From: Gammaproteobacteria bacterium
GTDB lineage: Bacteria > Pseudomonadota > Gammaproteobacteria > Enterobacterales > Alteromonadaceae
Direction: 5' to 3'
NCBI GenBank assembly: GCA_018826295.1
Contig: JAHJZX010000035.1
Span: 1-64,000 of the forward strand
DNA length: 64,000 bases
The notes under the pieces were generated by a model. It worked only from the letters and a program-made list of their open reading frames with translations, was not told where the DNA came from and ran no database searches. Of the stretch, positions 18,214 through 35,312 are shown piece by piece (positions within the stretch are counted from its first letter, which is position 1; each line of letters starts with the position of its first letter). The position numbers and the translations under genes were made by a program.

Positions 18214-18323
18214 GTTGCTGTAGCAACCTAGCTGTTAATATTGCGCCTTAGTTGTATCATCTATGTCATTCGTCAGTATAATCAATGCATTATTAATAGT
18301 AGCTATTGCATTTGAGATTGCCG

Positions 18324-20773: not shown

Positions 20774-22885
20774 GTGAGTCACAGGGTAAATCTAATTTCA
20801 TTCGGTGAACTACATTTTTGTATAAAGAATCAGCAGTTTTTTAAAGGTGAGCATGAGGTCCGTGCTGAACCAAAGGTGTGTGAATTACTCACTTACTTAT
20901 ATCAAAATCGGGACAGATATGTAAGTTTACCTGAGCTGCATGAGGCGTTGTGGTGTGGCAGGGTAGTTAGTGACACTGCTGTACGCCGAACCATTAGCAA
21001 ACTTCGATCGTTACTGGCTGATGAAGCTTCGGCAGATGGTTGTATCCGTTCGTTATCGAAACGTGGTTATAAATTAGTTATAGATGGTTTAAGCGATAAA
21101 AATCAGGACGTTAATGAATGTCCGACAGGTGTCGATGTCTTTGGGCAGCCTGATGTTGTTGCAATTGATGTCAGGCAACAAGCCACTGAAGCGGTATCTG
21201 ATATTGTTCCCGTTACCAAAAATACAGCATCATCAGTATTATTTACTAATCGTTGGATGACATTTTATTTATTGTTGCTGCTGCTGGCTGTTTTGGTTCT
21301 GGCTGCTTTGGTACCAACTTTTTCTGATAATGCGGAAACAATCCAACTCAATTCTGACAAAATTCAGACGTTTGTCTTATCACAAGATAAGCGTTTTATT
21401 GTATATGCCGCAGATTTAACCGGCTTGGATGGGTACCAGCTGTTTTTGAAAGATTTGAATAGCGGCTTTGTACAACAGCTTACAAGAGGTAGAAAGAAGT
21501 ATATTGCAGCTGCTTTTACCGAACAGGGCAATACTTTGCTTTATATAAGCTGGGATTATAAAAACTATCAACTTAGTCAAATCGATATACAGAATGCCGC
21601 TGCTGTAGATATGGAGAGTAACTTATTGCTGGAGCAGAGCTTACCGATAACCAATCTATATGTTGGCGATCAAGCGGACATTTTTTTAACGCTATATAGC
21701 TCTTTGCAAACAGCGGCCATTTATCAGTTTGACCGTAATAGCTTGACGACAAAGGCGGTGACTTTCCCGCGCGATACCGGTACCTATGATGAATTTCCAC
21801 TGTTAAACCATAAGACAGACACCTTGTATTACATTAGAACTCAAGCCAGTGGTAATCCAATATTAATGGCGCAGGATTATCAAAATGGTAAGACACTTAA
21901 ACAAGTGACCTTGCCGAAAGGCAGGCTCCGAGACTTGCAGTGGTATGATGAAGACGAATTACTACTGCTGTACACCGATCAGATATTAGTAGCTAAGTTA
22001 GCCTCAGGGAAGCTAAAACGCTTAGATAATACTGCCGAAAATACAACTTATCTAAAACTCCAGTCCTGGCACAATAATAAATTTCTGTTGCTTGAAAACA
22101 CCGCTATGCAGCGCCAATTTTATTTGCACCAGCAAGCGGGAAAGGCACCACTACTAAATATACCTGAGATGGTATACAGCGTTAAATTTACCCACAGTGA
22201 AGACAAGCTATTGTTATGTAGCAGAGATACTGCAGGTTCGATGCTGAGTGTATTGGACAAACAAACAGGTAAAGAATCATTGTTGATGAAAACACAAGGT
22301 ATTATCAATGATTTAGCCATTTCACCAGATGGCAATAACGTACATTTAAGCATAGATAAGCGGTTGGCTATTTTTAATCAAGAAACGGCTAGCTTGTATT
22401 TTATTACTAATGAAGCACAACAAGTTGCCGGGCTTGGCGAATTCAGCCATGACAATAGCTTTTTATTATATGGTGAAAAGTTTGGCGGACGCTGGCGCAT
22501 TGTGAAGCACGATTTAGCTACCCAACAAAGTAGTGTATGGATGGAAGATTATGTCAGGGTTAAAAGAATGCCACAGGGCTACGCGTTGCAAGGAATTGAA
22601 GGGCGTTTGTTTCAGTTGAAAAGCACCAATGGAAAACCTGAACCATTAGCGGTAGCACCGTTAGATTTGTACGAAGAATTTCAGCTGCGCTACCCTTTGG
22701 TGTACCAGCGGCAAGTGCGGGATGGACATTACCAGTTGGCAGCCTTCAACTTACTTAACGGCCAGGAAACAATAGTAGAGTCCCAGACTTTGGTTAGTTT
22801 TGACTTTTCAGTAGATAATCGTTTTTTTATTACTCAAAGAATCAGTTACCAATCAAGTCTGAGAAACATATCACTGTCACACTGA
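20774..22885 (+). CDS. membrane-bound winged-helix regulator with C-terminal beta-propeller, copy 3
   Basis: 703 residues with a GTG start. Winged helix: AEPKVCELLTYLYQN, then SDTAVRRTISKLRSLL and SLSKRGYKLVI as the wing. The membrane segment is at about residues 163-183 (FYLLLLLLAVLVLAALVP). The C-terminal part has repeated blade-like segments (for example HSEDKLLLCSRDTAGSMLSV, SPDGNNVHLSIDKRLAIF). It is the regulator nearest to the azole-peptide precursor genes, about 850 bp upstream and on the same strand, so it is the best candidate for controlling that cluster. That link is inference from position. Confidence 0.85.
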   Translation: MSHRVNLISFGELHFCIKNQQFFKGEHEVRAEPKVCELLTYLYQNRDRYVSLPELHEALWCGRVVSDTAVRRTISKLRSLLADEASADGCIRSLSKRGYKLVIDGLSDKNQDVNECPTGVDVFGQPDVVAIDVRQQATEAVSDIVPVTKNTASSVLFTNRWMTFYLLLLLLAVLVLAALVPTFSDNAETIQLNSDKIQTFVLSQDKRFIVYAADLTGLDGYQLFLKDLNSGFVQQLTRGRKKYIAAAFTEQGNTLLYISWDYKNYQLSQIDIQNAAAVDMESNLLLEQSLPITNLYVGDQADIFLTLYSSLQTAAIYQFDRNSLTTKAVTFPRDTGTYDEFPLLNHKTDTLYYIRTQASGNPILMAQDYQNGKTLKQVTLPKGRLRDLQWYDEDELLLLYTDQILVAKLASGKLKRLDNTAENTTYLKLQSWHNNKFLLLENTAMQRQFYLHQQAGKAPLLNIPEMVYSVKFTHSEDKLLLCSRDTAGSMLSVLDKQTGKESLLMKTQGIINDLAISPDGNNVHLSIDKRLAIFNQETASLYFITNEAQQVAGLGEFSHDNSFLLYGEKFGGRWRIVKHDLATQQSSVWMEDYVRVKRMPQGYALQGIEGRLFQLKSTNGKPEPLAVAPLDLYEEFQLRYPLVYQRQVRDGHYQLAAFNLLNGQETIVESQTLVSFDFSVDNRFFITQRISYQSSLRNISLSH

Positions 22886-22999
22886 GGTGTTAGCAGGTGC
22901 AAAAGTTATAAAAAAGTACTTAAAAAACTACATCCTGGTTGTTTGATTTTGCTGGGTTTATGCCACAGTAAGCTGGTCTACCAACCAGAGGAAACTGTA

Positions 23000-23200
23000 A
23001 TGTTGAAAACTATCTTTGCATCGAGTTTGGCTTTTACTTTTGTAGTCGCAGCCAGTTTTTCGCCAACTACATCAGCAAAAGGCGTTGAATATACCCCTTC
23101 GCCAACTCAGCCGGTAATTCCTCCAATGATACCGCCACAAGAGCCGAATAAACCGATGTGTGAAATTATTGATGTTATGCAATGTCCGCCGGGATATTAA
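23000..23200 (+). CDS. small secreted proline-rich protein with two cysteines
   Basis: 66 residues if started at the ATG at 23000, which has GAGG 8 bp upstream; an in-frame ATG at 22943 would add 19 residues but lacks a comparable site. Residues 1-24 form a signal peptide (hydrophobic SSLAFTFVVAASF, then TTSA). The mature part is rich in proline (PSPTQPVIPPMIPPQEPNKP) and has Cys54 and Cys62, which could form a disulfide in CEIIDVMQC. I recognise no family. It sits between regulator copy 3 and the peptide cluster. Confidence 0.6.
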   Translation: MLKTIFASSLAFTFVVAASFSPTTSAKGVEYTPSPTQPVIPPMIPPQEPNKPMCEIIDVMQCPPGY

Positions 23201-23731: not shown

Positions 23732-23860
23732 ATGCGAGTTTCGACACTGAAGTTTTATTGCACCAGTAAGAACAATGCCAAGCCATATCGAGTTCATATG
23801 GCAGGTCGTTGTACCTGTACCTGTATTCGCCCAGATTTCACTGCATCCAGTGCTGAGTAG
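23732..23860 (+). CDS. azole-peptide precursor 1 (plantazolicin-like core)
   Basis: 42 residues. The leader has the shared motif STLKFY (residues 4-9) and ends in VHMAG (21-25). The predicted core starts at Arg26: RCTCTCIRPDF, then TASSAE. Three Cys alternate with Thr, ideal substrates for YcaO cyclodehydration to thiazoles and oxazoles. The plantazolicin precursor of Bacillus velezensis has the same arrangement: leader end MAA, core RCTCTTIISSSSTF. AAGGA lies 8 bp upstream of the ATG. Two sibling precursors follow on the same strand before the modification genes. Cleavage after Gly25 is inferred from the plantazolicin parallel. Confidence 0.85.
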   Translation: MRVSTLKFYCTSKNNAKPYRVHMAGRCTCTCIRPDFTASSAE

Positions 23861-24008
23861 CTGTAAGCGCTGAGCAAAGTTAAATCTGTGGCTGGCAGTT
23901 TTACTGCCAACTGGCGAATTTGCACCTACAAATGTCGCTTTGGCAACATCGGTGCATTTAAAAAGAACGGCCGCTTCTGGCCATTATCAAACCTAAAAGG
24001 AAACTAAG

Positions 24009-24122
24009 ATGAAAACTTTAAAATTCTATAACGCAAACGAGCAAAAAAACCAAGTAGAAGCTGTACGTATGGCTGGCCGCTGCAGCTGCTGCTGCTGGGG
24101 TGACTGGGCAGATCAGCAATAA
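24009..24122 (+). CDS. azole-peptide precursor 2
   Basis: 37 residues. It shares the leader motif KTLKFY (residues 2-7) and the leader end VRMAG (19-23) with precursor 1. The predicted core is RCSCCCWGDWADQQ: four Cys and a Ser within the first six residues, then two Trp. An AAAGGA ribosome-binding sequence precedes the ATG. It is followed 23 bp later by a strong terminator. The different core but equal leader is the usual pattern when one enzyme set processes several substrates. Confidence 0.85.
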   Translation: MKTLKFYNANEQKNQVEAVRMAGRCSCCCWGDWADQQ

Positions 24123-24145
24123 CTGCTCAGTACTCTATGTTACAG

Positions 24146-24177
24146 AACGATGAGTAAAAATTTACTCATCGTTTTTT
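24146..24177 (+). terminator. intrinsic terminator/attenuator after precursor 2
   Basis: Arms 24146-24158 and 24161-24173 pair perfectly (13 bp, 2-nt formal loop) and run into a six-T stretch (24172-24177). It lies between precursor 2 and precursor 3, so it would make precursor 1/2 message more abundant than downstream message. Confidence 0.9.
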
Positions 24178-24191
24178 GAACAGGACTAAAA

Positions 24192-24287
24192 ATGAAAAAT
24201 TTACAGTTTTACAGCTTAAGCAGTAAGGCAAGCAACACTGTCAAGATGGCAGGTAGCTGCTGCTGTACTAGCATCAGGCCGGCATAA
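24192..24287 (+). CDS. azole-peptide precursor 3
   Basis: 31 residues. Leader motif KNLQFY (residues 2-7) and leader end VKMAG (17-21) match the other two precursors. The predicted core is SCCCTSIRPA: three consecutive Cys, then Thr and Ser, with IRP also found in the core of precursor 1. AGGAC lies 6 bp before the ATG. It is followed 6 bp later by another hairpin with a T-rich tail. Confidence 0.83.
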   Translation: MKNLQFYSLSSKASNTVKMAGSCCCTSIRPA

Positions 24288-24293
24288 CAATTG

Positions 24294-24346
24294 GATTGAT
24301 TAGAGCGTTGTTAAAAATGTTCTTATGCTCTAATCAATCTCTTTAT
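24294..24346 (+). terminator. terminator/attenuator after precursor 3
   Basis: A 13-bp perfect stem (24294-24306 with 24327-24339) with a 20-nt loop, followed by TCTTTATTTC. The tail is T-rich but not a pure run, so partial read-through into the modification genes is plausible. Confidence 0.75.
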
Positions 24347-24469
24347 TTCTCAACAACAAGCTGTGTTTGCCAGCTTTAGTTGCCAGTTTGAATAATTATA
24401 TAGCTGATTCAGATTGTAATTTCTGCTGCATAGTCCGCTTCTACTTTCTTTAGCGTCAAAAGAGTACTA

Positions 24470-25405
24470 ATGATGAATTATTTTTTGCATCCAAATTTAA
24501 CTGTGACCGAAGTGTCACCGGATAAAGTGCATTTGGCTAACCTGGCTCATCAAATTACTATTGAAGGACAGAACCAGAATTTAAAGCGAGTGTTGCAGGC
24601 TATTCAGACCGGGACGCTTGCTGAATTATTACAACAGCAAGATCCAGACCTCGAGACTTTCTACGCCATCTTGGAATTTCTCACTGAGCACCAGTTCGCC
24701 AGCCTTCAGTCATTTGTCGTTACTGACAAAATGATGTTGGACTTAGCCCTATTGCAAGTCACCGGGCAGGACGGAGAGTTAAAAGGCCCATTGGCTGGAT
24801 ATGAGAATGTGCGACCTAACAGTGTGGCGATTTTTGGCCAGGGTGAGTTGTTTAGCCGCGTTGTGGCTGAATTGCGGGCATTGGATTTTTCTGTACTGGA
24901 AAACCCTGAAGAAAGCGCCTGTGAGCGACTGTTATTGATAACCTGCAGTGACAATCTGAACTTTACTCTAAACAAAAAAATAAATGCTCTGGCAATAGCC
25001 CGACAACTGCCAGCGCTGTTTGCTGTGTTAAATGAACACATTGCTTTAGTTGGCCCTCTGGTTATACCGGGAGAAAGTAGTTGCTTTAGTTGTTATGAGC
25101 ATCGGTTGGCTCCGAACATGCATTTTGTCGAGGAGACTATCGCCAGCCAATTCCAACATGGCAACCTTATCAAACCTCGCTCTAAACCTGGAGTCTACGC
25201 CATAGCAGCTAGCTTTCAGATAATTAGTCAGATATTGAAGTTTTTCAACAGAGCTTACGAATTTTGTTTAGTGAACGAAGTCCTTGAAATCAACCTGCTT
25301 GATTATGCCACGGATATACGTCCGGTCTTACGGATCCCTCATTGTCCGGCATGTTACAGCCAGCACCGTTTGAAACCCAAAGCCGCTGTACGCGCGTTAC
25401 TGTAA
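24470..25405 (+). CDS. E1-like cyclodehydratase partner protein with RiPP recognition domain (TOMM C-protein type)
   Basis: 311 residues. The first 80 or so residues look like a PqqD-type RiPP recognition element that would bind the precursor leader. A ThiF/E1-like core follows, with a degenerate nucleotide loop IFGQGELFSRVV (121-132). Four Cys at 205, 208, 292 and 295 (CFSC and CPAC) form the structural zinc site of the ocin-ThiF-like family. These proteins deliver the precursor to the YcaO enzyme and activate it. Two adjacent ATG codons (24470, 24473) are possible starts. The gene ends 10 bp before the YcaO gene. Confidence 0.88.
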   Translation: MMNYFLHPNLTVTEVSPDKVHLANLAHQITIEGQNQNLKRVLQAIQTGTLAELLQQQDPDLETFYAILEFLTEHQFASLQSFVVTDKMMLDLALLQVTGQDGELKGPLAGYENVRPNSVAIFGQGELFSRVVAELRALDFSVLENPEESACERLLLITCSDNLNFTLNKKINALAIARQLPALFAVLNEHIALVGPLVIPGESSCFSCYEHRLAPNMHFVEETIASQFQHGNLIKPRSKPGVYAIAASFQIISQILKFFNRAYEFCLVNEVLEINLLDYATDIRPVLRIPHCPACYSQHRLKPKAAVRALL

Positions 25406-25415
25406 GGTTAGAATC

Positions 25416-26744
25416 ATGAGATCGCATAACCAGACCGAACTTTCAGAAAAGCTACAAAACGTGATTAATCAGCTGGTCGATAGCAAAACCGGTGTGATTA
25501 CCCGATTGCATGAGGTGCCGTTACAAGCCTCTGAACATGAACTGCATATTTACACTGCAGGTTGTTCTGACATTAACTACGTATTGCAGTTACAACATGG
25601 CGTCAGACCAAAAATGGAGGCAATAGCTTCCGGTGCCGGTTTAAGCAAAGAGGAAGCCTTGTGGTCGACGGTTGGCGAAGCCTGTGAGCGGTATATAGCC
25701 ACTTACCACTTTGCTAATGAGTCGTTTGTTGCCAGTGAAAATAGTTTTAGTAACCTACCAATTAAGTTGGCAGATTATATAGCTTTTTCAAAAGAGCAGT
25801 ATCAACAGACCAGCTTTCCTTTTCTGCCGGTTGATAGTGAGGCAGAAATCCACTGGGCGCAGGGTGTATGTCTTAACTCGCTGCAACAAGTGCCGATCCC
25901 TGCACAACTGGTTTGGTTAAATCAGCATTTTTTGACTGGGCAAGAGCGGTTTTTCCCTCAAATCAGCACTGGTTTGGCTGCTGGCGAAAGTATTGCTCAT
26001 GCTGCGTTAACTGGTTTACGCGAAGTAATAGAACGCGATGCTTTTACCAGTTACTGGTTATTACAGAAAACACCACGGCGTATTCGACCTGAATTACTGG
26101 TCCCTGCGGGCTCAGCTTTGGAAGCTATGATTGAACGATCTGGTTTAACGCTGGATCTGTTGTGGCTGGAAACAGATATACAGGTACCGTCCATTTTATG
26201 TTTGTTGCAACTGCCAGAATGCCGGGGCTTAGCAGTTGGCATGTCGACACATTTAAATGCAGCTGTAGCGGCAGAAAAAGCCATAGTTGAAGCTTTTCAT
26301 ACGTACAATTGGATCCTTGAAATGCGTCGCAGCGGTTTAACTAGTTTGCCGCGCGAACAATTACGTGATTTTGAACACCATGTCCGGTTTTACCTGCAGC
26401 CTGAAAATCATCAGTATGTCGCCTTCTTGCAACAAGGTGCTGATCTGGATGCTGCCGAGCTGGCTCGACATCAGTTCAAGGTTACCGATCATGACAGCCA
26501 TCTGGCTGAACTGACAAAAAGAATCACAAATGCTGGATTTCGGTCCTGCTATGTTGATATCTCCAAGCCGGAATTTACTGAGCTGAGTATCTATGCAGTA
26601 AAAGCGGTTATTCCGGGCTTACAGCCACTGCATGTGGGGGTAGGTACTGAATTTCTTGACGATCGTCGCTTGCGGCAGTTATGTGATTACTGGCAAACAT
26701 CTATGCCCGCCTCACTTAATCTTGAACCCCACCCTTTCCCTTAA
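25416..26744 (+). CDS. YcaO-family ATP-dependent azoline cyclodehydratase (SagD-like)
   Basis: 442 residues. It uses ATP to phosphorylate the amide backbone of Cys/Ser/Thr residues in the core and close azoline rings. The ATP/Mg-binding glutamate motifs are visible as GEACERY (87-93) and ALTGLREVIERDAF (197-210). The C-terminus ends PHPFP (438-442), which fits the PxPxP tail that marks true azoline-forming YcaO proteins. It has no fused E1 domain, so it needs the partner encoded just upstream. The next gene is 17 bp away. Confidence 0.95.
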   Translation: MRSHNQTELSEKLQNVINQLVDSKTGVITRLHEVPLQASEHELHIYTAGCSDINYVLQLQHGVRPKMEAIASGAGLSKEEALWSTVGEACERYIATYHFANESFVASENSFSNLPIKLADYIAFSKEQYQQTSFPFLPVDSEAEIHWAQGVCLNSLQQVPIPAQLVWLNQHFLTGQERFFPQISTGLAAGESIAHAALTGLREVIERDAFTSYWLLQKTPRRIRPELLVPAGSALEAMIERSGLTLDLLWLETDIQVPSILCLLQLPECRGLAVGMSTHLNAAVAAEKAIVEAFHTYNWILEMRRSGLTSLPREQLRDFEHHVRFYLQPENHQYVAFLQQGADLDAAELARHQFKVTDHDSHLAELTKRITNAGFRSCYVDISKPEFTELSIYAVKAVIPGLQPLHVGVGTEFLDDRRLRQLCDYWQTSMPASLNLEPHPFP

Positions 26745-26761
26745 CGCTGAGGTATAACGTC

Positions 26762-27598
26762 ATGTCATTGCTGGCTAGAAAAAACAAAACTTCGTTTGCC
26801 GAAGATCACTGGACCGGTTCGGAAGCTGCAGTATTTCACGAGCAAACAAAGCATACCCGGGTAGAATTAATCAAGAGAACGCCGCGTATACGCACATATT
26901 TATCTGACTTGAAATGTATTCAGGAAACAGGTCGGAACTATAAAGAATATGATATTTACCGCCAGATCCCGCTGTCTGATATTCAATTGCAGAAACAATC
27001 TTTATCCGAAGCGTTAAAAACTCGTCGCAGTTCGTACAATTTTAATGGTGAAGCGCTGAGTTTTACTGACTTATCTGATTTGCTTGGTGCTGCGGCTGGT
27101 GTCACGATTAAAAGACCATTGTCACGACAATTACCAGATGAAGTACTTGCTTCACGCAGTTACCCTTCGGGTGGTGGCTTGTATCCCTGCGAATTGTATG
27201 TCGTTGCGGTTAATGTTGAGGGGCTTGCTGCCGGTTTTTATCATTACGACAACGCTCGTCACGGCTTGGACCCAATTGCAGATGCCAGTGGTATTGCTCA
27301 GTTAGCAACGCAATGTTTAGCCACTCAATACTTTCCGAACATAGCCTGTGCACTGATTATAACATCGGTTTTTGAACGTACAGTAACCAAGTATGGTGAC
27401 AGAGGTTATCGATTGGCTTTGCTGGAAGCCGGCCATTTGATGCAAAACTTGTTGCTGACTGCCACAGCTCAGGGGCTGGGCAATTTGTGCTGGGGAGCTT
27501 ATCAGGACAATGAAGTAGCCAGCTTATTGCAAACCGATGTACTGGCTGAGCCGCCTGTCCATATGGCCTTTGTTGGGCATTGCGGAGCGGCGGTATGA
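26762..27598 (+). CDS. SagB-type FMN-dependent azoline dehydrogenase
   Basis: 278 residues, nitroreductase fold. It oxidises azolines to aromatic thiazoles and oxazoles with FMN. Typical family elements are LKTRRSSYNFNG (85-96) and RSYPSGGGLYPCELYVVA (132-149), and LEAGHLMQNLLLTATAQGLG in the C-terminal third. It belongs to the TOMM cyclodehydratase/dehydrogenase set with the two genes before it. Its stop overlaps the start of the next gene (ATGA), indicating translational coupling. Confidence 0.95.
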   Translation: MSLLARKNKTSFAEDHWTGSEAAVFHEQTKHTRVELIKRTPRIRTYLSDLKCIQETGRNYKEYDIYRQIPLSDIQLQKQSLSEALKTRRSSYNFNGEALSFTDLSDLLGAAAGVTIKRPLSRQLPDEVLASRSYPSGGGLYPCELYVVAVNVEGLAAGFYHYDNARHGLDPIADASGIAQLATQCLATQYFPNIACALIITSVFERTVTKYGDRGYRLALLEAGHLMQNLLLTATAQGLGNLCWGAYQDNEVASLLQTDVLAEPPVHMAFVGHCGAAV

Positions 27599-29043
27599 CT
27601 ATCGCACCAGTGCTAGAGCAGTTGAAGATGGAATTAGCCCGCGATCCTTATCGTTTTGATCTGGTCATTCAGCAATTGCTGCACAGCTCCGTTACCGGAT
27701 GTGTTAAAACGCAGCAGCAAGCGTTAGATGTATTAAAGCGTTTACCCGATCCGTTGCAATTTGTTGTGATGGCAGAACAATTACAAACTGGCCAACTGCA
27801 GATCTTGTTTTTTGAACGCTATTATCTGCTGGCGCCGGTACAGATGGGTAGTGATGCTATCAGCTTAGTTTGTAAACAGATAGACCATATTCTGGACTTC
27901 TTGTTGCAGCTTGAGCCTGCCGGATTTAAAGATCTGCTGGTGATACAGCTAATGCCTGGCATTTTTTCTTTTCTTGATCAGCGGCTTAGTGGCGTTGCTT
28001 ATGTACAGATTGAGCATCACCCTCATTCACCAGAGTTGGTGCCAGCACGTATAGCACATGAATTAGCCCATGTTGTATTTCCGTGTAAAAATAGAGTTTT
28101 GTCAGAAGGAATTGCGCTTTACCTGGAATGGTCGCTGTATCCGGCAGTGGCTCTGTTGGGGCCTCCAGAGCAAGTGCGGCAGCAACTGGCTGATTACCCT
28201 GGAACCAAGCCTAAGCTTGAACTGTTAATGTCTGCACATTTTGATCAGGATGTGCTTTTTAAACAAACCACCCGCTCAACTGCTGAGCAGCAGTTTATCT
28301 ATCAAGCCGGATTTTTACTGATCGCAACACTGGTAGCTACAAATACTGTAGCAGGTATTGCCACTTTGGTGAGGTCGCTAGCCGATCCTGCAGCTGAAGT
28401 ACTGCCAACCTACCTTAGCCTGACGTCGCCACCAAAAGAACTTGCCTTATCGGTACTGAGTAATGCAATAGCTTCACCAGAGCTGGCGGATATTGAATTG
28501 TTGATATGCCAGGACCGTCTAAATAACACTAGTGTTGCATATCAACGCTGTTACGCTGAGCTTAGTAAAGTTACCGCAGCCTCGTCCGAAACGGCAATAA
28601 AGCATTTGTTACTACTCGCCCGACTACTACTTAGCAAAATGTACAGTGATTTTCATCAACAGCGGATGATAGAAGAGTTTGATACTGGACAGGTTAAGCA
28701 GTACAGCGCACAACTGCAGCAATTGGGATGGCAAGCCGAATCAGCCTATCTGAATGCCAGGTTGGCGCTATTGTATGCGTTTTACAGTGAAGATTTTTTG
28801 CAACAGGCTCAATGGTTTGAACAGGTTGTATACGGTTATGAAGCAGGATTGGCTTCGCCCTGGGTTGGCAGTGAAGCGCATTTAGATTACGCCAGTTTTT
28901 GTTTGCATACACCAGTAAACATAGAGCAAAACAGACAAAGAGCAGCTCATTTACTAAGTTCTGTAAAATTGAGTAGTCGCTTTCAAGCAGAAGTTCAGCG
29001 ATTGCTGCAGCGTTGTCAATTGTTAAGTGAGGCAACGGTATGA
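27595..29043 (+). CDS. HExxH zinc metallopeptidase-like protein, candidate leader peptidase
   Basis: 482 residues starting at the ATG that overlaps the dehydrogenase stop; a TTG at 27580 would add five residues. The motif HELAH is at 155-159 and a SEG glutamate at 171 follows 11 residues later, resembling the HExxH...NEG pattern of gluzincins but with a shorter gap. No signal peptide or membrane helix is evident, so it is probably cytoplasmic. The C-terminal 200 residues are helix-rich, possibly TPR-like. No other peptidase is encoded in the cluster, so removal of the leader after Met-Ala-Gly is its likely job; this is inference. Confidence 0.72.
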   Translation: MTIAPVLEQLKMELARDPYRFDLVIQQLLHSSVTGCVKTQQQALDVLKRLPDPLQFVVMAEQLQTGQLQILFFERYYLLAPVQMGSDAISLVCKQIDHILDFLLQLEPAGFKDLLVIQLMPGIFSFLDQRLSGVAYVQIEHHPHSPELVPARIAHELAHVVFPCKNRVLSEGIALYLEWSLYPAVALLGPPEQVRQQLADYPGTKPKLELLMSAHFDQDVLFKQTTRSTAEQQFIYQAGFLLIATLVATNTVAGIATLVRSLADPAAEVLPTYLSLTSPPKELALSVLSNAIASPELADIELLICQDRLNNTSVAYQRCYAELSKVTAASSETAIKHLLLLARLLLSKMYSDFHQQRMIEEFDTGQVKQYSAQLQQLGWQAESAYLNARLALLYAFYSEDFLQQAQWFEQVVYGYEAGLASPWVGSEAHLDYASFCLHTPVNIEQNRQRAAHLLSSVKLSSRFQAEVQRLLQRCQLLSEATV

Positions 29044-29927
29044 GTTTGCAAATTAAGCGCATAGCTACTAAACCACGGCAGAACTTCAAATTGGATCTGG
29101 CTGATATTGTTATAGAGCCAATGGAATGTGTCAGTGTGGTTGGTGCTAATGGCTGCGGCAAAACTACATTGTTGGAGTCAGTGTTGGGTATGGCTCCAAC
29201 TTTGCAACGTGACGTATGGTTGTTTGGTCAGCGCACCTGCATGGATGAACGTGATTTTCAACTGCGCCGGAAAATTGGTGTGCAATTGCAGAAATCTCAG
29301 TTCAACCGAAAGTTATTAGTAAGTGACTTAATTAGCTTACACAAAGTGGTTTACCGCCGGTCCTGCAAAATTATCGCAGAACTATTTCAGTTAAAAGCGC
29401 TGCTGCCAATGCGATATGAGCGCTTATCCCGGGGACAGAAACAACGTGTTGATTTGTATTTGGCATTTGCACATCAGCCGGAGTTTATTCTGCTGGATGA
29501 GCCTGGTACCGGGTTAGACGCCGAATTCCGCAACGCTTTTATCCAGCTGTTACAACAGGTCATTGGTAAATCAGCCGGTGTGCTAATGGTATCGCATCAA
29601 GAAAGCGAAATTCTGTTGTCTCATCGTACCCTGGTACTTCAGGCTGGCAAAGTGGTGCACTTTGCTCCTGCTGCAACCTTGGTTAAGCAGTTTGTTGGTA
29701 CACATAAAATTGAGTTTGAATGTTATGAAAGCCGTATAGCCGATGAAATAATCTGCAAAGCCCGTGTTATGGATTCTGTTGTCAGGGCTCAGCTTACTCA
29801 ACACAACAAAGGTCTTATTTTTACCAGAACAAATATCATTAATGCTTTGGTAAATGATTTTGGCTCAGAGCTTTTTTCAAAGATAGCGCTTTGTGAAAGC
29901 TCTGTTTCTGACATGATCGCTAATTAG
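29040..29927 (+). CDS. ABC transporter ATP-binding protein, peptide export/immunity
   Basis: 295 residues. Walker A VGANGCGKTT (34-43), signature LSRGQKQRVDL, and Walker B FILLDEPGTGLD are all present. The start overlaps the previous stop by 4 bp (ATGA). A C-terminal extension of about 80 residues follows the nucleotide-binding domain. With the ABC-2-type permease encoded 12 bp downstream it forms an exporter that probably secretes the modified peptides or gives self-protection. Confidence 0.93.
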   Translation: MSLQIKRIATKPRQNFKLDLADIVIEPMECVSVVGANGCGKTTLLESVLGMAPTLQRDVWLFGQRTCMDERDFQLRRKIGVQLQKSQFNRKLLVSDLISLHKVVYRRSCKIIAELFQLKALLPMRYERLSRGQKQRVDLYLAFAHQPEFILLDEPGTGLDAEFRNAFIQLLQQVIGKSAGVLMVSHQESEILLSHRTLVLQAGKVVHFAPAATLVKQFVGTHKIEFECYESRIADEIICKARVMDSVVRAQLTQHNKGLIFTRTNIINALVNDFGSELFSKIALCESSVSDMIAN

Positions 29928-29938
29928 AGTGGCCGGCC

Positions 29939-31048
29939 ATGAAGATATTTTTTGAATTTTTCAAAATTGAATTGAAAGCATTTTGCCGAGACCCTATCGC
30001 AATATTCTGGACGTTTTTATTCCCATTTATAATTTTGTTTACAGTCATGTCCACTTCGGGAAAGCATGAATCGGTAGAGCTTCCGAGAATAGTTGTGCTA
30101 GTCGAAGAAAGAATGGATCTAACTGATATTTCTTCACGAATAGACCAGGTGTTTCCTGAGTTAACAAAGTCAAGTGTAAGTTTTTTATCATCAGGTTTAG
30201 AAAATATTCTGTCAGATTTTAAGCGCAATAATATTGTTGTTGATGTTAGTGGTTGCGCTGATGTCGGTTTATCCTGCGCAGGTGTTGATGTCTATTATGC
30301 ATCGTCTCCAGATGATTTAACCCTAATGATTTTGAATATTCTACGGCAGAATCAACAGTTTTTAATTCCCAGTGAAAGTGTTACATGGCGGTACGCTGAG
30401 CAAAATATTGATCATAAATCACAGGTCAAATGGCTGCAAAAAGCACGGCAGTTAACCATTGGTCTAATTTGCTTAAATATTGTTTCAATTTGTTTGTTTG
30501 GTTTTTCAGTTATATTGGTTGAATTGCGACAAAATGATGGGCTTAAGTTCTTTCAGGTCATGCCTGTGCGTAAATCTGTATTTATTAGTGCGTTCACTTT
30601 AAGTCGGGTTGTAATTATTAATGTTTTTGCTTTGGTTTTTTTGCTTGTATCTAATTTTACATTCGAACTGGATATTAACTTTTCGCCCGAATACTTTTTA
30701 AAGTTCATTTTTATGGTGTCAATTGGCTCCGCTACATTCGTTAGTTTGGGAGTGCTGCTAGCATCTAGATTAACCTCGGTTGGTGCAGTAAACGGTTTGA
30801 TAAATCTTGTTTATTTCCCTTTGATTTTCACCAGTGGGATATTTTTCCCAGTGCTATCTGACAGCAAGTTTCTCACTTTTGTTTCAAACAACTCCCCGTT
30901 ACGAGGGTACTCAGAAATGTTTTATTCAGTTTATTTTGTTGGTAGAGATTTGATTTTATATTCTGGCTCGGTTTTTACATTGCTTGGCTGGTGTGTTCTG
31001 TCGGGTTTTGTTGCATTCAAAATGTTTATCTGGGTTAAAAAAGACTAA
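29939..31048 (+). CDS. ABC-2-type transporter permease
   Basis: 369 residues. One membrane helix near the N-terminus (PIAIFWTFLFPFIILFTVM), a soluble loop of about 130 residues, then about five helices in the C-terminal half, which is the ABC-2 permease layout. It is cognate to the ATPase just upstream. This gene is clearly more AT-rich than its neighbours, consistent with acquisition from elsewhere or relaxed codon selection. Confidence 0.88.
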   Translation: MKIFFEFFKIELKAFCRDPIAIFWTFLFPFIILFTVMSTSGKHESVELPRIVVLVEERMDLTDISSRIDQVFPELTKSSVSFLSSGLENILSDFKRNNIVVDVSGCADVGLSCAGVDVYYASSPDDLTLMILNILRQNQQFLIPSESVTWRYAEQNIDHKSQVKWLQKARQLTIGLICLNIVSICLFGFSVILVELRQNDGLKFFQVMPVRKSVFISAFTLSRVVIINVFALVFLLVSNFTFELDINFSPEYFLKFIFMVSIGSATFVSLGVLLASRLTSVGAVNGLINLVYFPLIFTSGIFFPVLSDSKFLTFVSNNSPLRGYSEMFYSVYFVGRDLILYSGSVFTLLGWCVLSGFVAFKMFIWVKKD

Positions 31049-31067
31049 AAGATTTAGCGGAGACTAT

Positions 31068-32318
31068 ATGGCAAATTATTACCAAGATTTTGATGCTAGT
31101 GTTCCATCATTTTCCAGGCACGAACTACAGTCAATTGAAATCTTTGAAGCAGATTTAAAAATATTAGCCCGGCAATGGGTGTTATTAGATCACATTTCCA
31201 GTTTTACTGCTGTTGGTGATTACAAAGTTTTTCAGTTGGCCGGTGAGTCAGTTGTTATTGTACGCAACGAGCAGGGCTTTTCTGGCTTTCTGAATTTCTG
31301 TCTGCACCGGGGGGCAAAGTTATGTACTAAAAGCCAGGGGAGGCAATCTGCGTTCACTTGCCCATATCATGCATGGCGTTACGATTTAACCGGCGTACTG
31401 CAGCAGGCAACAGCTTGCACGTCAAAGCGGGTTACAGTTGGTGAATCGCGTTTAAATGCGGTTTCGGTGCGCGTTGAAGCCGGACTGATTTTTGCCTCTC
31501 TGCAGGCAGAACACAGTACTTTTTCTGCCTCAGCGGAATTGTTTGCCCCTTTTCTGGCATGGCATAACACCAGTGCAGCAAAAATTGCCGGTAGCAAACG
31601 TTTTGTCGCTAAAGGTAACTGGAAATTGTTTGCCGACAATTTTTTTGAGTGTTACCACTGCCGCGTACTGCATCCGGAAATGTGTGAGCTGGCGGTTCAT
31701 CCTAAAATCACTTCTACTGTTTCAACAGCGCAGCATGGCCAGTATATGGCAGTAGCTCAGGATTGGTTTGAGAAAGTTGCGCGTCTGGGGCATCCCGTTG
31801 GGGAGCGACAGTCGCTAATGCCAGAGCTGGAGCATTTCAGTGTCATGTACCGGGTGCCGGTCGATAGCGTCAGTTTAACCTTGTCTAAAACCGGTCAACT
31901 GGTTGCTCCCTTAATGGGAGAAGCAAAAGTTGCCGATGGCGGCGAAACCTTTGGCTACCTTGGGCCCTTAACGCTGCTGAACATATATAACGACTACGGC
32001 TATAGCCTGAGACTGAATCCAATTAGTGTAGATGAAACTGAGTTGATTCTAACCTGGTTCGTAGCAGGTGATGCGGTTGAAGGCAAAGATTATCAGTTTG
32101 ATGAAGTAAGCTGGTTTTGGCAGACCACAGTACAACAGGATCTGGAGATAATTGAGCTGGCGCGTCAAGGCACCAGTTCACGCTTTTTTCAGCCGGGAGA
32201 CTACACCATGTTAGAAGCAGACAGTGCTGGCTTTGCCAGTTGGTATCGCCGTCAATTGCAACAACCGAAACAGGTTAGAGAGTCAGACGCTGTCGGCCTT
32301 GCAGTTGTCAATATATAA
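31068..32318 (+). CDS. Rieske non-heme iron oxygenase, alpha-subunit type
   Basis: 416 residues from the ATG at 31068, which has GCGGAGA upstream; an upstream in-frame start would overlap the permease and lacks such a site. The Rieske [2Fe-2S] ligands are Cys78-x-His80 and Cys98-x2-His101 (CLHRGAKL, CPYHAW). The mononuclear iron site is DNFFECYHCRVLHP with Glu194, His197 and His202. Such enzymes hydroxylate, demethylate or otherwise oxidise with O2 and need a reductase, which is not encoded nearby. Its place in the operon suggests oxidative tailoring of the azole peptides. A stand-alone housekeeping role is less likely. Confidence 0.9.
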   Translation: MANYYQDFDASVPSFSRHELQSIEIFEADLKILARQWVLLDHISSFTAVGDYKVFQLAGESVVIVRNEQGFSGFLNFCLHRGAKLCTKSQGRQSAFTCPYHAWRYDLTGVLQQATACTSKRVTVGESRLNAVSVRVEAGLIFASLQAEHSTFSASAELFAPFLAWHNTSAAKIAGSKRFVAKGNWKLFADNFFECYHCRVLHPEMCELAVHPKITSTVSTAQHGQYMAVAQDWFEKVARLGHPVGERQSLMPELEHFSVMYRVPVDSVSLTLSKTGQLVAPLMGEAKVADGGETFGYLGPLTLLNIYNDYGYSLRLNPISVDETELILTWFVAGDAVEGKDYQFDEVSWFWQTTVQQDLEIIELARQGTSSRFFQPGDYTMLEADSAGFASWYRRQLQQPKQVRESDAVGLAVVNI

Positions 32319-32327
32319 GGAGCGCCT

Positions 32328-32537
32328 GTGCGTGCAGTGGTGAGTTGCTTTGTTTTGCCGTTTAGTTGCGGTGTGTTCTCAGCAGTGGGGGCTGGCACTG
32401 AAACTAGATTAGGTACTGCTGTACCGCTAGTGCAGGTTAAGCCGCTGCGACCAGACTATCATCAGTTTGATTTAACGCTCTTGGCTGAAGTGGCAAAGCA
32501 TGAACTGCGGCATCTAACAAAACAGCTGAGGTGCTGA
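32328..32537 (+). CDS. small protein of unknown function in the azole-peptide cluster
   Basis: 69 residues, GTG start with AAGGAG 7 bp upstream. Residues 1-23 are hydrophobic and end in a small-residue stretch, resembling a signal peptide (VVSCFVLPFSCGVFSAVGAG). The rest is short and ends LTKQLRC. Its stop overlaps the next ATG (TGATG). No family is recognised. Position suggests an immunity or maturation factor. Confidence 0.5.
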   Translation: MRAVVSCFVLPFSCGVFSAVGAGTETRLGTAVPLVQVKPLRPDYHQFDLTLLAEVAKHELRHLTKQLRC

Positions 32538-33112
32538 TGCTTCGGGTCAATCGGGGGCGATTTTGGCAAACTAGCGGATGGATGTTGGGATTGATGATTG
32601 TTGCTGTTGTCGTTATTCTGCAATTGCCCGCCGTGCGGCTCAAATGGCTGCGGCAACCGGCTCAATTGCACCAACAAGCAGTCACAGTACTTCAGATAAA
32701 GACAGAACAACCATTGCTTTTCTCATCAGGTAGTTATGTCACCAAAGAAGACCGGTTGCAGGCAACAGAAGAGCCACTTCCGTATGCTGGTTGGATATTC
32801 TACCGGCAAAATTTGCAACCTGAATTAGTTAGCCTGGTACGGGAATCAGCACAGCATTATTATCAATACTTAGTACCAAATCAGGATTTATGGTGTTTGG
32901 GTGAGCGGGTACTGGTAATGCATAATGCTGTTCAAGCAGAAGCTAAGCTCAGATCACTGGTGAAGCTGCCTGGTGCAAAACGCCTTAGTTTGGGGTTAGA
33001 GTTTATTGATGTATACCAGGCAAATCTGCTTAACCCACTCGCCGAGAGTAATATTTATCTGATCCCGCTGCAACGCAACTTAGCTAATCTATGGCTATTG
33101 CCATCCTGTTAA
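32537..33112 (+). CDS. hypothetical membrane-anchored protein in the azole-peptide cluster
   Basis: 191 residues from the ATG that overlaps the previous stop; a GTG two codons earlier is possible. One membrane segment lies at about residues 13-31 (SGWMLGLMIVAVVVILQLP), followed by a probably periplasmic domain of 155 residues. I recognise no domain. It is the last gene of the cluster and is followed by a hairpin before a convergent regulator gene. It might give immunity or assist export. Confidence 0.6.
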   Translation: MLRVNRGRFWQTSGWMLGLMIVAVVVILQLPAVRLKWLRQPAQLHQQAVTVLQIKTEQPLLFSSGSYVTKEDRLQATEEPLPYAGWIFYRQNLQPELVSLVRESAQHYYQYLVPNQDLWCLGERVLVMHNAVQAEAKLRSLVKLPGAKRLSLGLEFIDVYQANLLNPLAESNIYLIPLQRNLANLWLLPSC

Positions 33113-33155: not shown

Positions 33156-35312
33156 TTACATTGCAGTCTGCCACTGAATAAACTCCAGTGCTAACTCGGG
33201 AGTGACAAATACAGTAGCATACAGATTATCCGGATTGTGCGGGTCTGGGTGCAGCGAAATTAAGCGCTGAGGCAATTGGGTTTTGCGGGTTTCACCATTT
33301 ACCGCATTGAACTGCTCTATATGGCCCAGCATGCTAAAGCGATACTGCAATCCACTTTGCAATAGCCACACACCGACAAAGCTGTTGTCGCTGCTGCTGT
33401 TAACTTCAATGTCATGTTTTGTACCGTCGACGTAGCGATACAATTTGCCGTCGCGGTGATAATGCAACACGCCATGCTGATCATACTGGGCAAAGCTACC
33501 CGCTGAGAAAGTCAGTTGAGTTAACTGATTACTAATCAGGTCAAATTGCCACAAGTTCTGACTGTTTTCCTGCAATCGTGTCAGCACCAAACCGCTGTTG
33601 TCAGGCAGCCAGACGGGTTGGCCAATATCGTTGTTTTCCAGCTTGGTTATTAACTGCTGACGCTGGGTATCATATAAATGCAGATTGCCGCGCTGTACAA
33701 AAGCGATATAACGACCATCACCCGACCAGCTAATGCCATTCACCGGTTGATTATCTGCTGTTAACTCAGTTAGTTGCTTATTCTGGCCATCGGTGTGCAG
33801 CCACAGCTGCCAGTTGCCGGTCCAGTTTGCGGCAAAGGCATAGCGGTTGGCATCAGTTGGCGATATTGCAATAGCTATATCGCTGCCTGCGGCATTATTT
33901 AAAAAGCTTATCTGGCGTTTGCTGGCATCAAAAGCATTGATCACTTTGATTAACTGCATACCGCCCTGAGTAGTGGTATTGGCGGTCATCGGTGAAGTAT
34001 ACGCCTGGTTTTCTGTTAGCAGAGACATCTCACCAACGATGACATCGTCCGGCAGCTTTAGCAGGCTGCGGCTCTTATCGGCCAGATTAACTTGCAAAAT
34101 GCCGTTGCCGCCGGGCAACAGCAAACTGCTTTGATCGGCGCTCCATTCTAATCCCAGTAGTAATATCGGCATGGACAGGCTGGCAACGCGGCTATGCTCG
34201 CGACTGGCCGGGTCATAAATATAGATATCCGGCTTGTTCGATTCTGGCATTAAAATATAAGCCAACTTGCTGCCATCGGCCGACAATGCCAGCAACGTCA
34301 CGCCTAAACCTGCCGAAGGCGCATCTAGCAGCGTTTGCACATTACCGTTAATCAGGTTCTGCGCTAATAAGGCATTGCCAGAATATATACCGGCTTTGCT
34401 TTTACTGTAATACAACCACTCGCCATCCTGGCTCACCTGTGCAGTGCCAAGAGTCATACCGTTACAGCCGGCTAAAGGCGTCAGGTTATAAGCCGGAAAC
34501 TGGCTAAAGTCGTAACTTTGGTATTCGCAGTGGCTGCCATCTTCAGTAATTGCCTGCACTAATAGCTTGCTGCTTTGTGGCTGCCAGGTTTGCACACTGT
34601 AAATTTTGCCTTGGTCTTCAAGTGCCACTTCCTGCAACAGATTGCCGGTGTTGATACCCTGTTTGCGTACCATGGTGCGGATACTGCCATCGGGTTGTGA
34701 GTGACTGTACGCCAATAGCTGTTTGTCCGGTGACACCAACGGCCGTGATTCGATACCTTTAAACCAGGTGATTTTTTGTTGGCTACTAATGGTCAGTTCG
34801 GTTGGGGCGGCGGCGCTTTTTGCCGCTACGGCCGGTTGCTGAGTGGTTGGGTCTGGCAGCATGTTATAGCCAAAAAATGCAAGGCTAACTAGTACCAATA
34901 GCGCTGTAACCATAGCTGCAATATGTAAATGCCGGCGTGCGGGCACGGTTTTGCTGCTTGATAAGCCAGGCGTGTCTTGTTGTGCAGCAACTGTAAGGTT
35001 GTTAACGGCAGCAGTAAGCTGCAGACTATAGCCTTTGCGGTGATGCGTTTTTATTGGTGATTCGCTCAGGCTATCATGTTGCAGTGCCTTGCGTAATTCT
35101 GAAATAGCACGGTTTATTGCGTTGTCGTCAACAAAGCTTTGTTGCCAGATGGTTTCAACCAACTGCTGGCGCGGCACTATAGTACCGGGGTGGGTGGCAA
35201 AGCATAGCAGCAGTTTACATAACAAAGGTTCCAGTTCTGTGCGCTTGTCGCCATCATAAATGCTGAAATCGGCCGGGATAAAAGTCCAGGGGCCCAGCTG
35301 AAACTTATGCAT
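33156..35312 (-). CDS. membrane-bound winged-helix regulator with C-terminal beta-propeller, copy 4
   Basis: 718 residues. Winged helix: LEPLLCKLLLCFATHPG, then FVDDNAINRAISELRKALQ and HRKGYSLQLT. The membrane helix is at about residues 131-149 (IAAMVTALLVLVSLAFFGY). The periplasmic part has many TolB-like blades (WSADQSSLLLPGGNGILQV, WSGDGRYIAFVQRGNLHLYD). It is more distant from copies 1-3, which are closer to one another. It is transcribed toward the end of the peptide cluster and away from the small secreted protein at 35616. Confidence 0.87.
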   Translation of the reverse strand: MHKFQLGPWTFIPADFSIYDGDKRTELEPLLCKLLLCFATHPGTIVPRQQLVETIWQQSFVDDNAINRAISELRKALQHDSLSESPIKTHHRKGYSLQLTAAVNNLTVAAQQDTPGLSSSKTVPARRHLHIAAMVTALLVLVSLAFFGYNMLPDPTTQQPAVAAKSAAAPTELTISSQQKITWFKGIESRPLVSPDKQLLAYSHSQPDGSIRTMVRKQGINTGNLLQEVALEDQGKIYSVQTWQPQSSKLLVQAITEDGSHCEYQSYDFSQFPAYNLTPLAGCNGMTLGTAQVSQDGEWLYYSKSKAGIYSGNALLAQNLINGNVQTLLDAPSAGLGVTLLALSADGSKLAYILMPESNKPDIYIYDPASREHSRVASLSMPILLLGLEWSADQSSLLLPGGNGILQVNLADKSRSLLKLPDDVIVGEMSLLTENQAYTSPMTANTTTQGGMQLIKVINAFDASKRQISFLNNAAGSDIAIAISPTDANRYAFAANWTGNWQLWLHTDGQNKQLTELTADNQPVNGISWSGDGRYIAFVQRGNLHLYDTQRQQLITKLENNDIGQPVWLPDNSGLVLTRLQENSQNLWQFDLISNQLTQLTFSAGSFAQYDQHGVLHYHRDGKLYRYVDGTKHDIEVNSSSDNSFVGVWLLQSGLQYRFSMLGHIEQFNAVNGETRKTQLPQRLISLHPDPHNPDNLYATVFVTPELALEFIQWQTAM

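What the first reader, a model, noticed from the sequence alone, without database searches (positions are those of the whole stretch)
23732..33112. Undescribed azole-peptide (TOMM/LAP) RiPP cluster with three precursors and a Rieske oxygenase in a gammaproteobacterium
Seen: three short Cys-rich precursor genes are followed by an E1-like protein with CxxC pairs, a YcaO ending in PxPxP, a SagB-type dehydrogenase, an HExxH protein, an ABC exporter pair, a Rieske oxygenase and two small unknowns, all on one strand with overlaps or short gaps. Known: E1-like plus YcaO plus SagB is the core azole-forming set. Inference: products are linear azole-containing peptides with an extra oxidation. Combination of plantazolicin-type cores with a Rieske enzyme is not one I know.
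Basis: partly seen in the sequence, partly recalled or inferred. Interest (0 to 1): 0.95.

Follow-up and report, generated by a model that had tools for sequence, protein, structure and literature searches.

The report
Azole-peptide cluster with Rieske oxygenase
A gene cluster that should make small sulfur-ring (azole) peptides carries an oxygen-inserting enzyme of a kind not known to work on such peptides, and the same pairing turns up in three related bacteria, which suggests a new step in making this class of natural product.

Summary
In detail: 23732-33112 (+) is one operon-like block with three short Cys-rich precursors, an E1-like C protein, a YcaO, a SagB-type dehydrogenase, an HExxH protein, an ABC exporter pair, a Rieske oxygenase and two small unknowns. 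It is a linear azole peptide (LAP/TOMM) cluster. Gene order and precursor junction are nearest to the uncharacterised "helicobactin" type on an H. pylori plasmid. Plantazolicin is not met: no methyltransferase, half the core pattern. A C-protein profile gave five strong matches among 395 family genomes, the window included. Four of the five have a Rieske oxygenase in the same gene run. These four keep both metal-site motifs and fall on one side of a tree against ten oxygenases from other contexts (94/94, long-branch warning; unresolved). The window genome has no other PF00848 protein. The fifth cluster has YcaO-TfuA instead. In 4 of 5 genus relatives fetched the site is empty, so the cluster is probably acquired. 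No held paper contains both YcaO and Rieske. That the Rieske enzyme oxidises the peptide is inferred, untested. New variant of a known kind.

The parts
23732..23860 (+). precursor peptide A1, 42 aa; predicted core after ..MAG: RCTCTCIRPDFTASSAE
   Evidence: ORF with upstream GGA; LxFY and MAG(R/S)C shared with A2 and A3, and a like junction in precursors of related clusters
24009..24122 (+). precursor peptide A2, 37 aa; predicted core RCSCCCWGDWADQQ
   Evidence: motif test
24144..24175 (+). 14-bp hairpin with T-rich 3' side after A2; possible attenuator
   Evidence: fold -18.3 kcal/mol for 24123-24182, not compared with shuffles; not listed by the consensus terminator scan
24192..24287 (+). 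precursor peptide A3, 31 aa; predicted core SCCCTSIRPA
   Evidence: motif test
24293..24340 (+). 16-bp hairpin after A3; possible attenuator
   Evidence: fold -21.0 kcal/mol for 24288-24352, not compared with shuffles; not listed
24470..25405 (+). C protein: E1-like, leader-peptide-binding cyclodehydratase partner, CxxC...CxxC
   Evidence: TIGR03882 43.8 bits, cut-off 36.9; TIGR03603 56 bits, under cut-off
25416..26744 (+). D protein: YcaO azoline-forming cyclodehydratase, ends PHPFP
   Evidence: PF02624 192.6 bits; TIGR03604 233.7 bits, cut-off 219.25
26762..27598 (+). B protein: SagB-type FMN azoline dehydrogenase, with K-Y pair (its role recalled)
   Evidence: TIGR03605 145.2 bits, cut-off 78.4; TKYGDRGYR
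27595..29043 (+). HExxH-x11-E protein, probable leader metallopeptidase
   Evidence: H155 E156 H159 E171 invariant in 6 aligned proteins; Peptidase_MA_2 matches 2 of 6, best E 0.0014, not the window member
29040..29927 (+). ABC transporter ATPase
   Evidence: PF00005; 31% identical to that of the G053 cluster
29939..31048 (+). ABC-2 type permease
   Evidence: PF01061, PF12698 over cut-off
31068..32318 (+). Rieske non-haem iron oxygenase alpha subunit (stachydrine/glycine-betaine monooxygenase-like)
   Evidence: PF00848 103.9 and PF00355 53.6 bits; ligand motifs intact; present in three related clusters
32328..32537 (+). 69-aa unknown protein, GTG start
   Evidence: ORF, no family match; gap of 9 bases to the Rieske gene
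32531..33112 (+). 193-aa unknown protein with one N-terminal hydrophobic stretch
   Evidence: ORF, no match over a cut-off; overlaps the gene before it

Best explanation
This is a horizontally acquired LAP/TOMM biosynthetic operon of the helicobactin-like type, extended by a Rieske oxygenase. Shown by sequence: three precursors with a common leader (LxFY) and a common presumed cleavage site (AG before R/S-C), the C-D-B azole synthetase, an HExxH protein, an exporter and the oxygenase, co-directional and partly overlapping. Inferred from the families: the C protein holds the leader, YcaO uses ATP to close Cys (and some Ser/Thr) to azolines, SagB oxidises azolines to azoles, the HExxH protein cuts the leader after AG, and the ABC pair exports the product. 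Inferred and untested: the Rieske enzyme, fed electrons by a general ferredoxin or flavodoxin reductase of the host, inserts oxygen into (or oxidatively cleaves a C-N bond of) the modified peptide. If the step is shared by the four clusters, its target must be something all cores have, namely an azole/azoline, a Ser/Cys-derived carbon or a peptide end, because the G076 cores hold only Ala, Ser and Cys.
For: Family matches. Precursor pattern in 0 of 2000 shuffles. Like leader and junction in G076, G532, G537 and the H. pylori plasmid, less so in G053. Rieske gene inside the gene run in the window (19-base gap to the gene before), G076 (27 bases, after the HExxH gene), G532 (14 bases) and G537 (6 bases). 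No other PF00848 match in the window genome. Intact Rieske and mononuclear iron motifs in all four. The four cluster oxygenases lie on one side of a branch against 10 others (94/94, not starred), and score 156-189 bits on the GbcA model against a cut-off of 670, where the G531 enzyme scores 755 and the G034 enzyme 327. Cluster absent, and flanks adjacent, in 4 of 5 genus relatives fetched.
Against: No chemistry is shown. The 12-row oxygenase tree did not resolve the group, and the 8- and 14-row trees carry a long-branch warning, so a single recruitment is not proved. A Yoonia enzyme from another gene context is as similar to the window's (34.7%) as its cluster relatives are (31-33%). No clear Stc4-type reductase is encoded in the genome (best partial match 36 bits). 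The HExxH proteins are too divergent for a pairwise match (none at E 1e-4 in the relatives' loci); their kinship rests on position and the four invariant residues, and their peptidase nature on weak matches. The structure job never finished. The YcaO and SagB trees place the window differently. The consensus terminator scan did not list the hairpins.
Confidence: 0.75

Rival explanations
1. Azole-peptide cluster with a catabolic Rieske oxygenase that merely sits at its end and does not touch the peptide.
For: Its nearest described families are N-demethylases of betaines (GbcA model match; solved structures 3vca and 4qup, the latter labelled demethylase, at E about 1e-52). Relatives of equal similarity exist in other gene contexts.
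Against: It is present in 4 of 5 strong clusters, in three different layouts. No betaine or reductase family shows among the cluster proteins, whereas the enzymes of G531 (my reading of the ORFs) and S. meliloti (annotated stc4) stand beside reductase genes, though not all the comparison enzymes do. No other PF00848 match in the genome.
Confidence: 0.15
2. A plantazolicin-family cluster in a gammaproteobacterium.
For: A1 core starts R-C-T-C-T (likeness recalled). C-D-B followed by a protease gene E also describes plantazolicin (order recalled); PMC5100339 names PznE the leader protease (passage).
Against: No methyltransferase among the nine proteins scanned. The two nonpolar residues and 5-6 further heterocyclizable residues that PMC4603692 gives for that core (passage) are absent from A1; A2 and A3 differ more. 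The best plasmid YcaO matches are H. pylori's (29.5% and 29.8%), though that collection need not hold a plantazolicin cluster.
Confidence: 0.06
3. The HExxH protein is an alpha-ketoglutarate-dependent oxidase rather than a peptidase, so the cluster has two oxygenases.
For: Such HEXXH enzymes modify RiPPs (PMC12636437, abstract and passages).
Against: No NCBIfam match at E up to 1 for the window protein; two of six aligned proteins match Peptidase_MA_2 weakly; HExxH-x11-E within an E/D-E-(G/S/A)-(I/L)-A context looks like gluzincin peptidases (inference).
Confidence: 0.1

Closest known systems
Helicobactin (uncharacterised TOMM type named in Cox et al. 2015, PMC4603692; plasmid NC_017373.1, L037)
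   Same: Gene order precursor-C-YcaO-SagB-HExxH protein-ABC ATPase-ABC permease; precursor with AG-R-C junction; HExxH-x11-E spacing
   Different: One precursor found, no match to either Rieske query in the 19-kb stretch; YcaO 29.8% identical. That this plasmid is one of the paper's ten strains is my inference from species and gene set
Plantazolicin (PZN)
   Same: Short precursor, core starting Arg-Cys, C-D-B set and a separate leader protease (PMC4603692 and PMC5100339 passages)
   Different: No SAM methyltransferase among the cluster proteins, different second half of core, three precursors, Rieske enzyme; proteins not compared directly
Stachydrine/glycine-betaine Rieske monooxygenases (Stc2, GbcA)
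   Same: Alpha-subunit family with CxHRG...CPYHAW and E-x2-H-x4-H...D motifs
   Different: 156-189 bits on the GbcA model against a cut-off of 670; gene context in peptide clusters

Membership tests
[quoted passage not shown]
   TIGR03604 and TIGR03882 over cut-offs
[quoted passage not shown]
   Three ORFs, motif in 0 of 2000 shuffles, motif chosen after the fact
[quoted passage not shown]
   Needs mass spectrometry; predicted masses
Helicobactin type | Discrete C and D proteins plus B protein, hypothetical protein and (in some) ABC transporters | tested here: met
   Same order as NC_017373.1; its hypothetical protein shares HExxH-x11-E; C, YcaO and SagB match at E 2e-9 to 2e-48
Helicobactin type | D protein in the same isofunctional group (BLAST E under 1e-54 network of PMC4603692) | tested here: inconclusive
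   E 4e-42 and 9e-40 to two H. pylori plasmids in a search of that collection; network not rebuilt; the H. pylori row lies inside the group of window relatives in the YcaO tree, on a long branch
Plantazolicin family | PZN-type SAM N-methyltransferase in the cluster (12 of 13 clusters in PMC4603692) | tested here: not met
   No methyltransferase family among the nine cluster proteins scanned; a copy elsewhere in the genome was not sought
Plantazolicin family | Core: five heterocyclizable residues, two nonpolar, then 5-6 heterocyclizable | tested here: not met
   A1 has C-T-C-T-C, then I-R-P-D-F and three Ser/Thr; A2 and A3 do not fit either
Glycine betaine monooxygenase (GbcA, NF058607) | Score over the curated cut-off of 670 bits | tested here: not met
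   189 bits; the three other cluster oxygenases 156-168
Rieske non-haem iron oxygenases | 2Fe-2S motif and 2-His-1-carboxylate site | tested here: met
   Motifs intact in all four cluster enzymes; PF00355 and PF00848 over cut-off for the window
alpha-KG HEXXH oxidases of RiPPs | Match to that enzyme family | tested here: inconclusive
   No NCBIfam match at E up to 1 for the window protein; that the library holds a model of that family is recalled, not checked

The most novel reading that the evidence does not exclude
A Rieske-oxygenase-tailored branch of linear azole peptides: an N-demethylase-like Rieske enzyme was recruited once into a helicobactin-like LAP pathway and now acts on an azole/azoline, a Cys/Ser-derived carbon or a peptide end of a ribosomal peptide, a reaction for which no Rieske precedent was found; in one sister cluster its place is taken by presumed backbone thioamidation (YcaO-TfuA with its own sulfur-carrier genes).
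Probability: 0.5. Interest if true: 0.75.

Novelty: new variant of a known kind. Interest (0 to 1): 0.62.

Why it matters
If the Rieske enzyme modifies the peptide, it adds an enzyme class to RiPP tailoring and gives four gene sets for finding its substrate; the Ala/Ser/Cys-only cores of G076 narrow the possible site. It also ties an uncharacterised H. pylori plasmid cluster type to relatives in other bacteria whose genes could be studied in laboratory strains.

Tried and rejected
The genome-contig scan with the YcaO gave one distant locus (L013, 28%), used only in a small-ORF listing and as one of 15 loci in a search. A class-wide search of 369 genomes with the HExxH protein alone found only the window's own; even G053, which was in that sample and has one, was missed, so the protein is too divergent for a single-sequence search. 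The C-protein profile worked better; three of its five strong matches are its own rows. Reading as plantazolicin was rejected on methyltransferase and core pattern. Regulation by the CadC-like genes around the cluster was considered: 18306 and 20774 lie inside the stretch missing from relatives, but nothing tests a link. The small proteins 32328-32537 and 32531-33112 had no hit with E under 1.8 in 15 loci. A sigma-70 scan gave fewer sites (1) than shuffles (mean 2.6). Of the 16 genomes that matched the C profile only the five strong ones had their cluster read; G066 was fetched and used in one tree and one search, the other ten were not examined. Of 10 matches only G831 was read beyond own and G053; the weak matches were not read. 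In the oxygenase trees, rows L056, L061, L062 (distant) and L069 (partial) were used and dropped; L060 did not pass the motif filter and was in no tree. Literature: PMC9902471 counts oxygenases it calls Rieske in genomes that hold many cluster types, LAPs among them (passage), without describing this pairing.
Full report
OBSERVATION. The block at 23732-33112 is real and as described. Nine proteins from 24470 to 33112 are co-directional; C to YcaO is 10 bases apart, YcaO to SagB 17, SagB and HExxH overlap, HExxH and the ATPase overlap, ATPase to permease 11, permease to Rieske 19, Rieske to the 69-aa ORF 9, and the last two overlap. Family scans put the C protein over the TIGR03882 cut-off, the YcaO over TIGR03604, SagB over TIGR03605, and the ABC pair and the Rieske oxygenase over their Pfam cut-offs. 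The HExxH protein and the 69-aa one have no match at all, the 193-aa one none over a cut-off.

PRECURSORS. The three short genes share L-x-F-Y near the start and M-A-G-(R/S)-C at the leader/core junction. A search for that pattern in 2000 dinucleotide shuffles of the intergenic stretch found it in none; the real sequence gives 5 starts, that is 3 genes with nested ATGs. The pattern was written after seeing the genes, so this is a check, not a blind test. The related clusters show a like build: G076 has three precursors with LNFY and ..MTAG-AC followed by Ser and Cys only plus a last Ala; G532 and G537 have LNFY and ..IKAG-RCSSTSSTCCCCC..; the H. pylori plasmid has ..ISAG-RCSSTSSSCCCCC... G053 has one that is less alike..SVG-RCSCSS... 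Hairpins follow A2 and A3 (-18.3 and -21.0 kcal/mol), which could set the ratio of precursor to enzyme, but they were not compared with shuffles and the consensus terminator scan did not list them.

DISTRIBUTION. A profile of the C protein, built from the window, G053 and G076, matched 16 of 395 genomes of the family at E up to 0.001, the window's included; five are strong (E under 1e-40): the three profile rows plus G532 and G537. With a six-row profile, 10 of 398 phylum genomes and 6 of 266 order genomes matched; the strong ones were again only the window and G053, both profile rows. No other genome labelled same genus had a YcaO or C match. The type is therefore rare and patchy in these samples. 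Among plasmid records the best YcaO matches are two H. pylori plasmids (29.5% and 29.8%). The second, NC_017373.1, has the order precursor-C-YcaO-SagB-hypothetical-ABC-ABC, and its hypothetical has HExxH-x11-E like the window's. This fits the type that Cox et al. 2015 named helicobactin from ten H. pylori strains without characterising it (PMC4603692, passages).

THE RIESKE ENZYME. It is present in 4 of the 5 strong clusters: window; G076, directly after the HExxH gene; G532 and G537, at the end of a longer run with extra LolD/LolE-like, LolA-like and barrel-like genes (my reading of the ORFs, not scanned). G053 is the exception: neither Rieske query matches its 19-kb cluster stretch, its two PF00848 matches lie 0.4 Mb or more away, and its cluster has a second YcaO with TfuA, a ThiF-rhodanese and a ThiS protein. 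The H. pylori plasmid stretch has none either. The window genome has no other PF00848 match and no clear Stc4-type reductase. All four cluster enzymes keep the Rieske and mononuclear iron motifs. They score 156-189 bits on the glycine-betaine monooxygenase model, against a cut-off of 670, 755 for the G531 enzyme and 327 for the G034 one. In a 14-row tree the four lie on one side of a branch against ten enzymes from loci without YcaO, C or SagB matches (94/94, not starred; one change in 96% of 200 bootstrap trees); in an 8-row tree 97/95; in a 12-row tree with distant rows the group was not resolved, and the program warns that long branches meet. By plain identity the window's enzyme is no closer to the cluster enzymes (31-33%) than to some others (up to 34.7%). 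The YcaO tree intermixes clusters with and without the Rieske gene, and the SagB tree, without starred branches, places the window elsewhere; this fits one recruitment with losses or transfers but does not prove it.

ACQUISITION. In two of five genus relatives fetched (G004, G030) the match to atpD is followed within about 0.55 kb by the match to the window's 33156-35312 regulator; in two more (G001, G006) the match to the M16 peptidase (14737-17619) is followed by it within about 0.7 kb. In the window 15.5 kb separate the last two, holding two CadC-like regulators and the cluster. In the fifth (G012) about 8 kb of other DNA lies there, with no match to the cluster's proteins. None of the five loci matches the Rieske, YcaO, C, SagB or HExxH protein at E 1e-4.

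MECHANISM. Steps from leader binding to export follow from the families named. The oxidation is inference. Because G076 cores contain only Ala, Ser and Cys, a reaction shared by the four enzymes would have to use azole, azoline, Ser/Cys carbon or a terminus, not Trp, Arg or Pro; if the enzymes differ in substrate this limit falls. A catabolic bystander is the main rival (0.15).

LITERATURE. No paper in the held library contains both YcaO and Rieske, YcaO and ring-hydroxylating, or plantazolicin and Rieske. Seven contain Rieske and 'ribosomally synthesized' (listing); I saw passages of three (one of them is held only in part), none describing this, and of the other four only the listing. Subscription papers are mostly not held, so absence is not proof.

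CHANGES MADE ON CHECKING. The H. pylori identity was tied to the right plasmid, the profile rows among the strong matches were stated, the alpha-KG membership row was set to inconclusive, and one search was added.

Noticed in passing
L014:2157-6152 (G053): A sister azole-peptide cluster carries a second YcaO with TfuA plus ThiF-rhodanese and ThiS proteins: by families an azole plus thioamide pathway with its own sulfur-carrier genes.
   Followed up: partly
L072:8626-15968 (G831, another class): C protein, three YcaO-like proteins, a methyltransferase-like protein, SagB and a 229-aa HExxH-x11-E protein side by side (my reading of the ORFs; C, YcaO and SagB matched); the HExxH partner may reach beyond this family.
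   Followed up: partly
L084 (Aeromonas salmonicida plasmid stretch): A TOMM leader-binding gene with a short YcaO-like remnant among insertion sequences; 12 plasmid records of the genus Aeromonas match.
   Followed up: no
window 12537-14630, 18306-20456, 20774-22885, 33156-35312: Four CadC-like proteins (Trans_reg_C domain plus a large C-terminal part) crowd this site; the stretch between atpD and glmU varies in content among the genus relatives fetched.
   Followed up: partly
window 22943-23200: Small Pro-rich ORF (85 aa from TTG) with a signal-peptide-like stretch and two Cys near its end, between the regulator and the cluster.
   Followed up: no
L063:5496-8820 and L064:5416-8708: G532 and G537 clusters hold extra envelope-type genes (LolE-like permease, LolA-like, barrel-like; my reading) before the Rieske gene, possibly for export or self-protection.
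   Followed up: no
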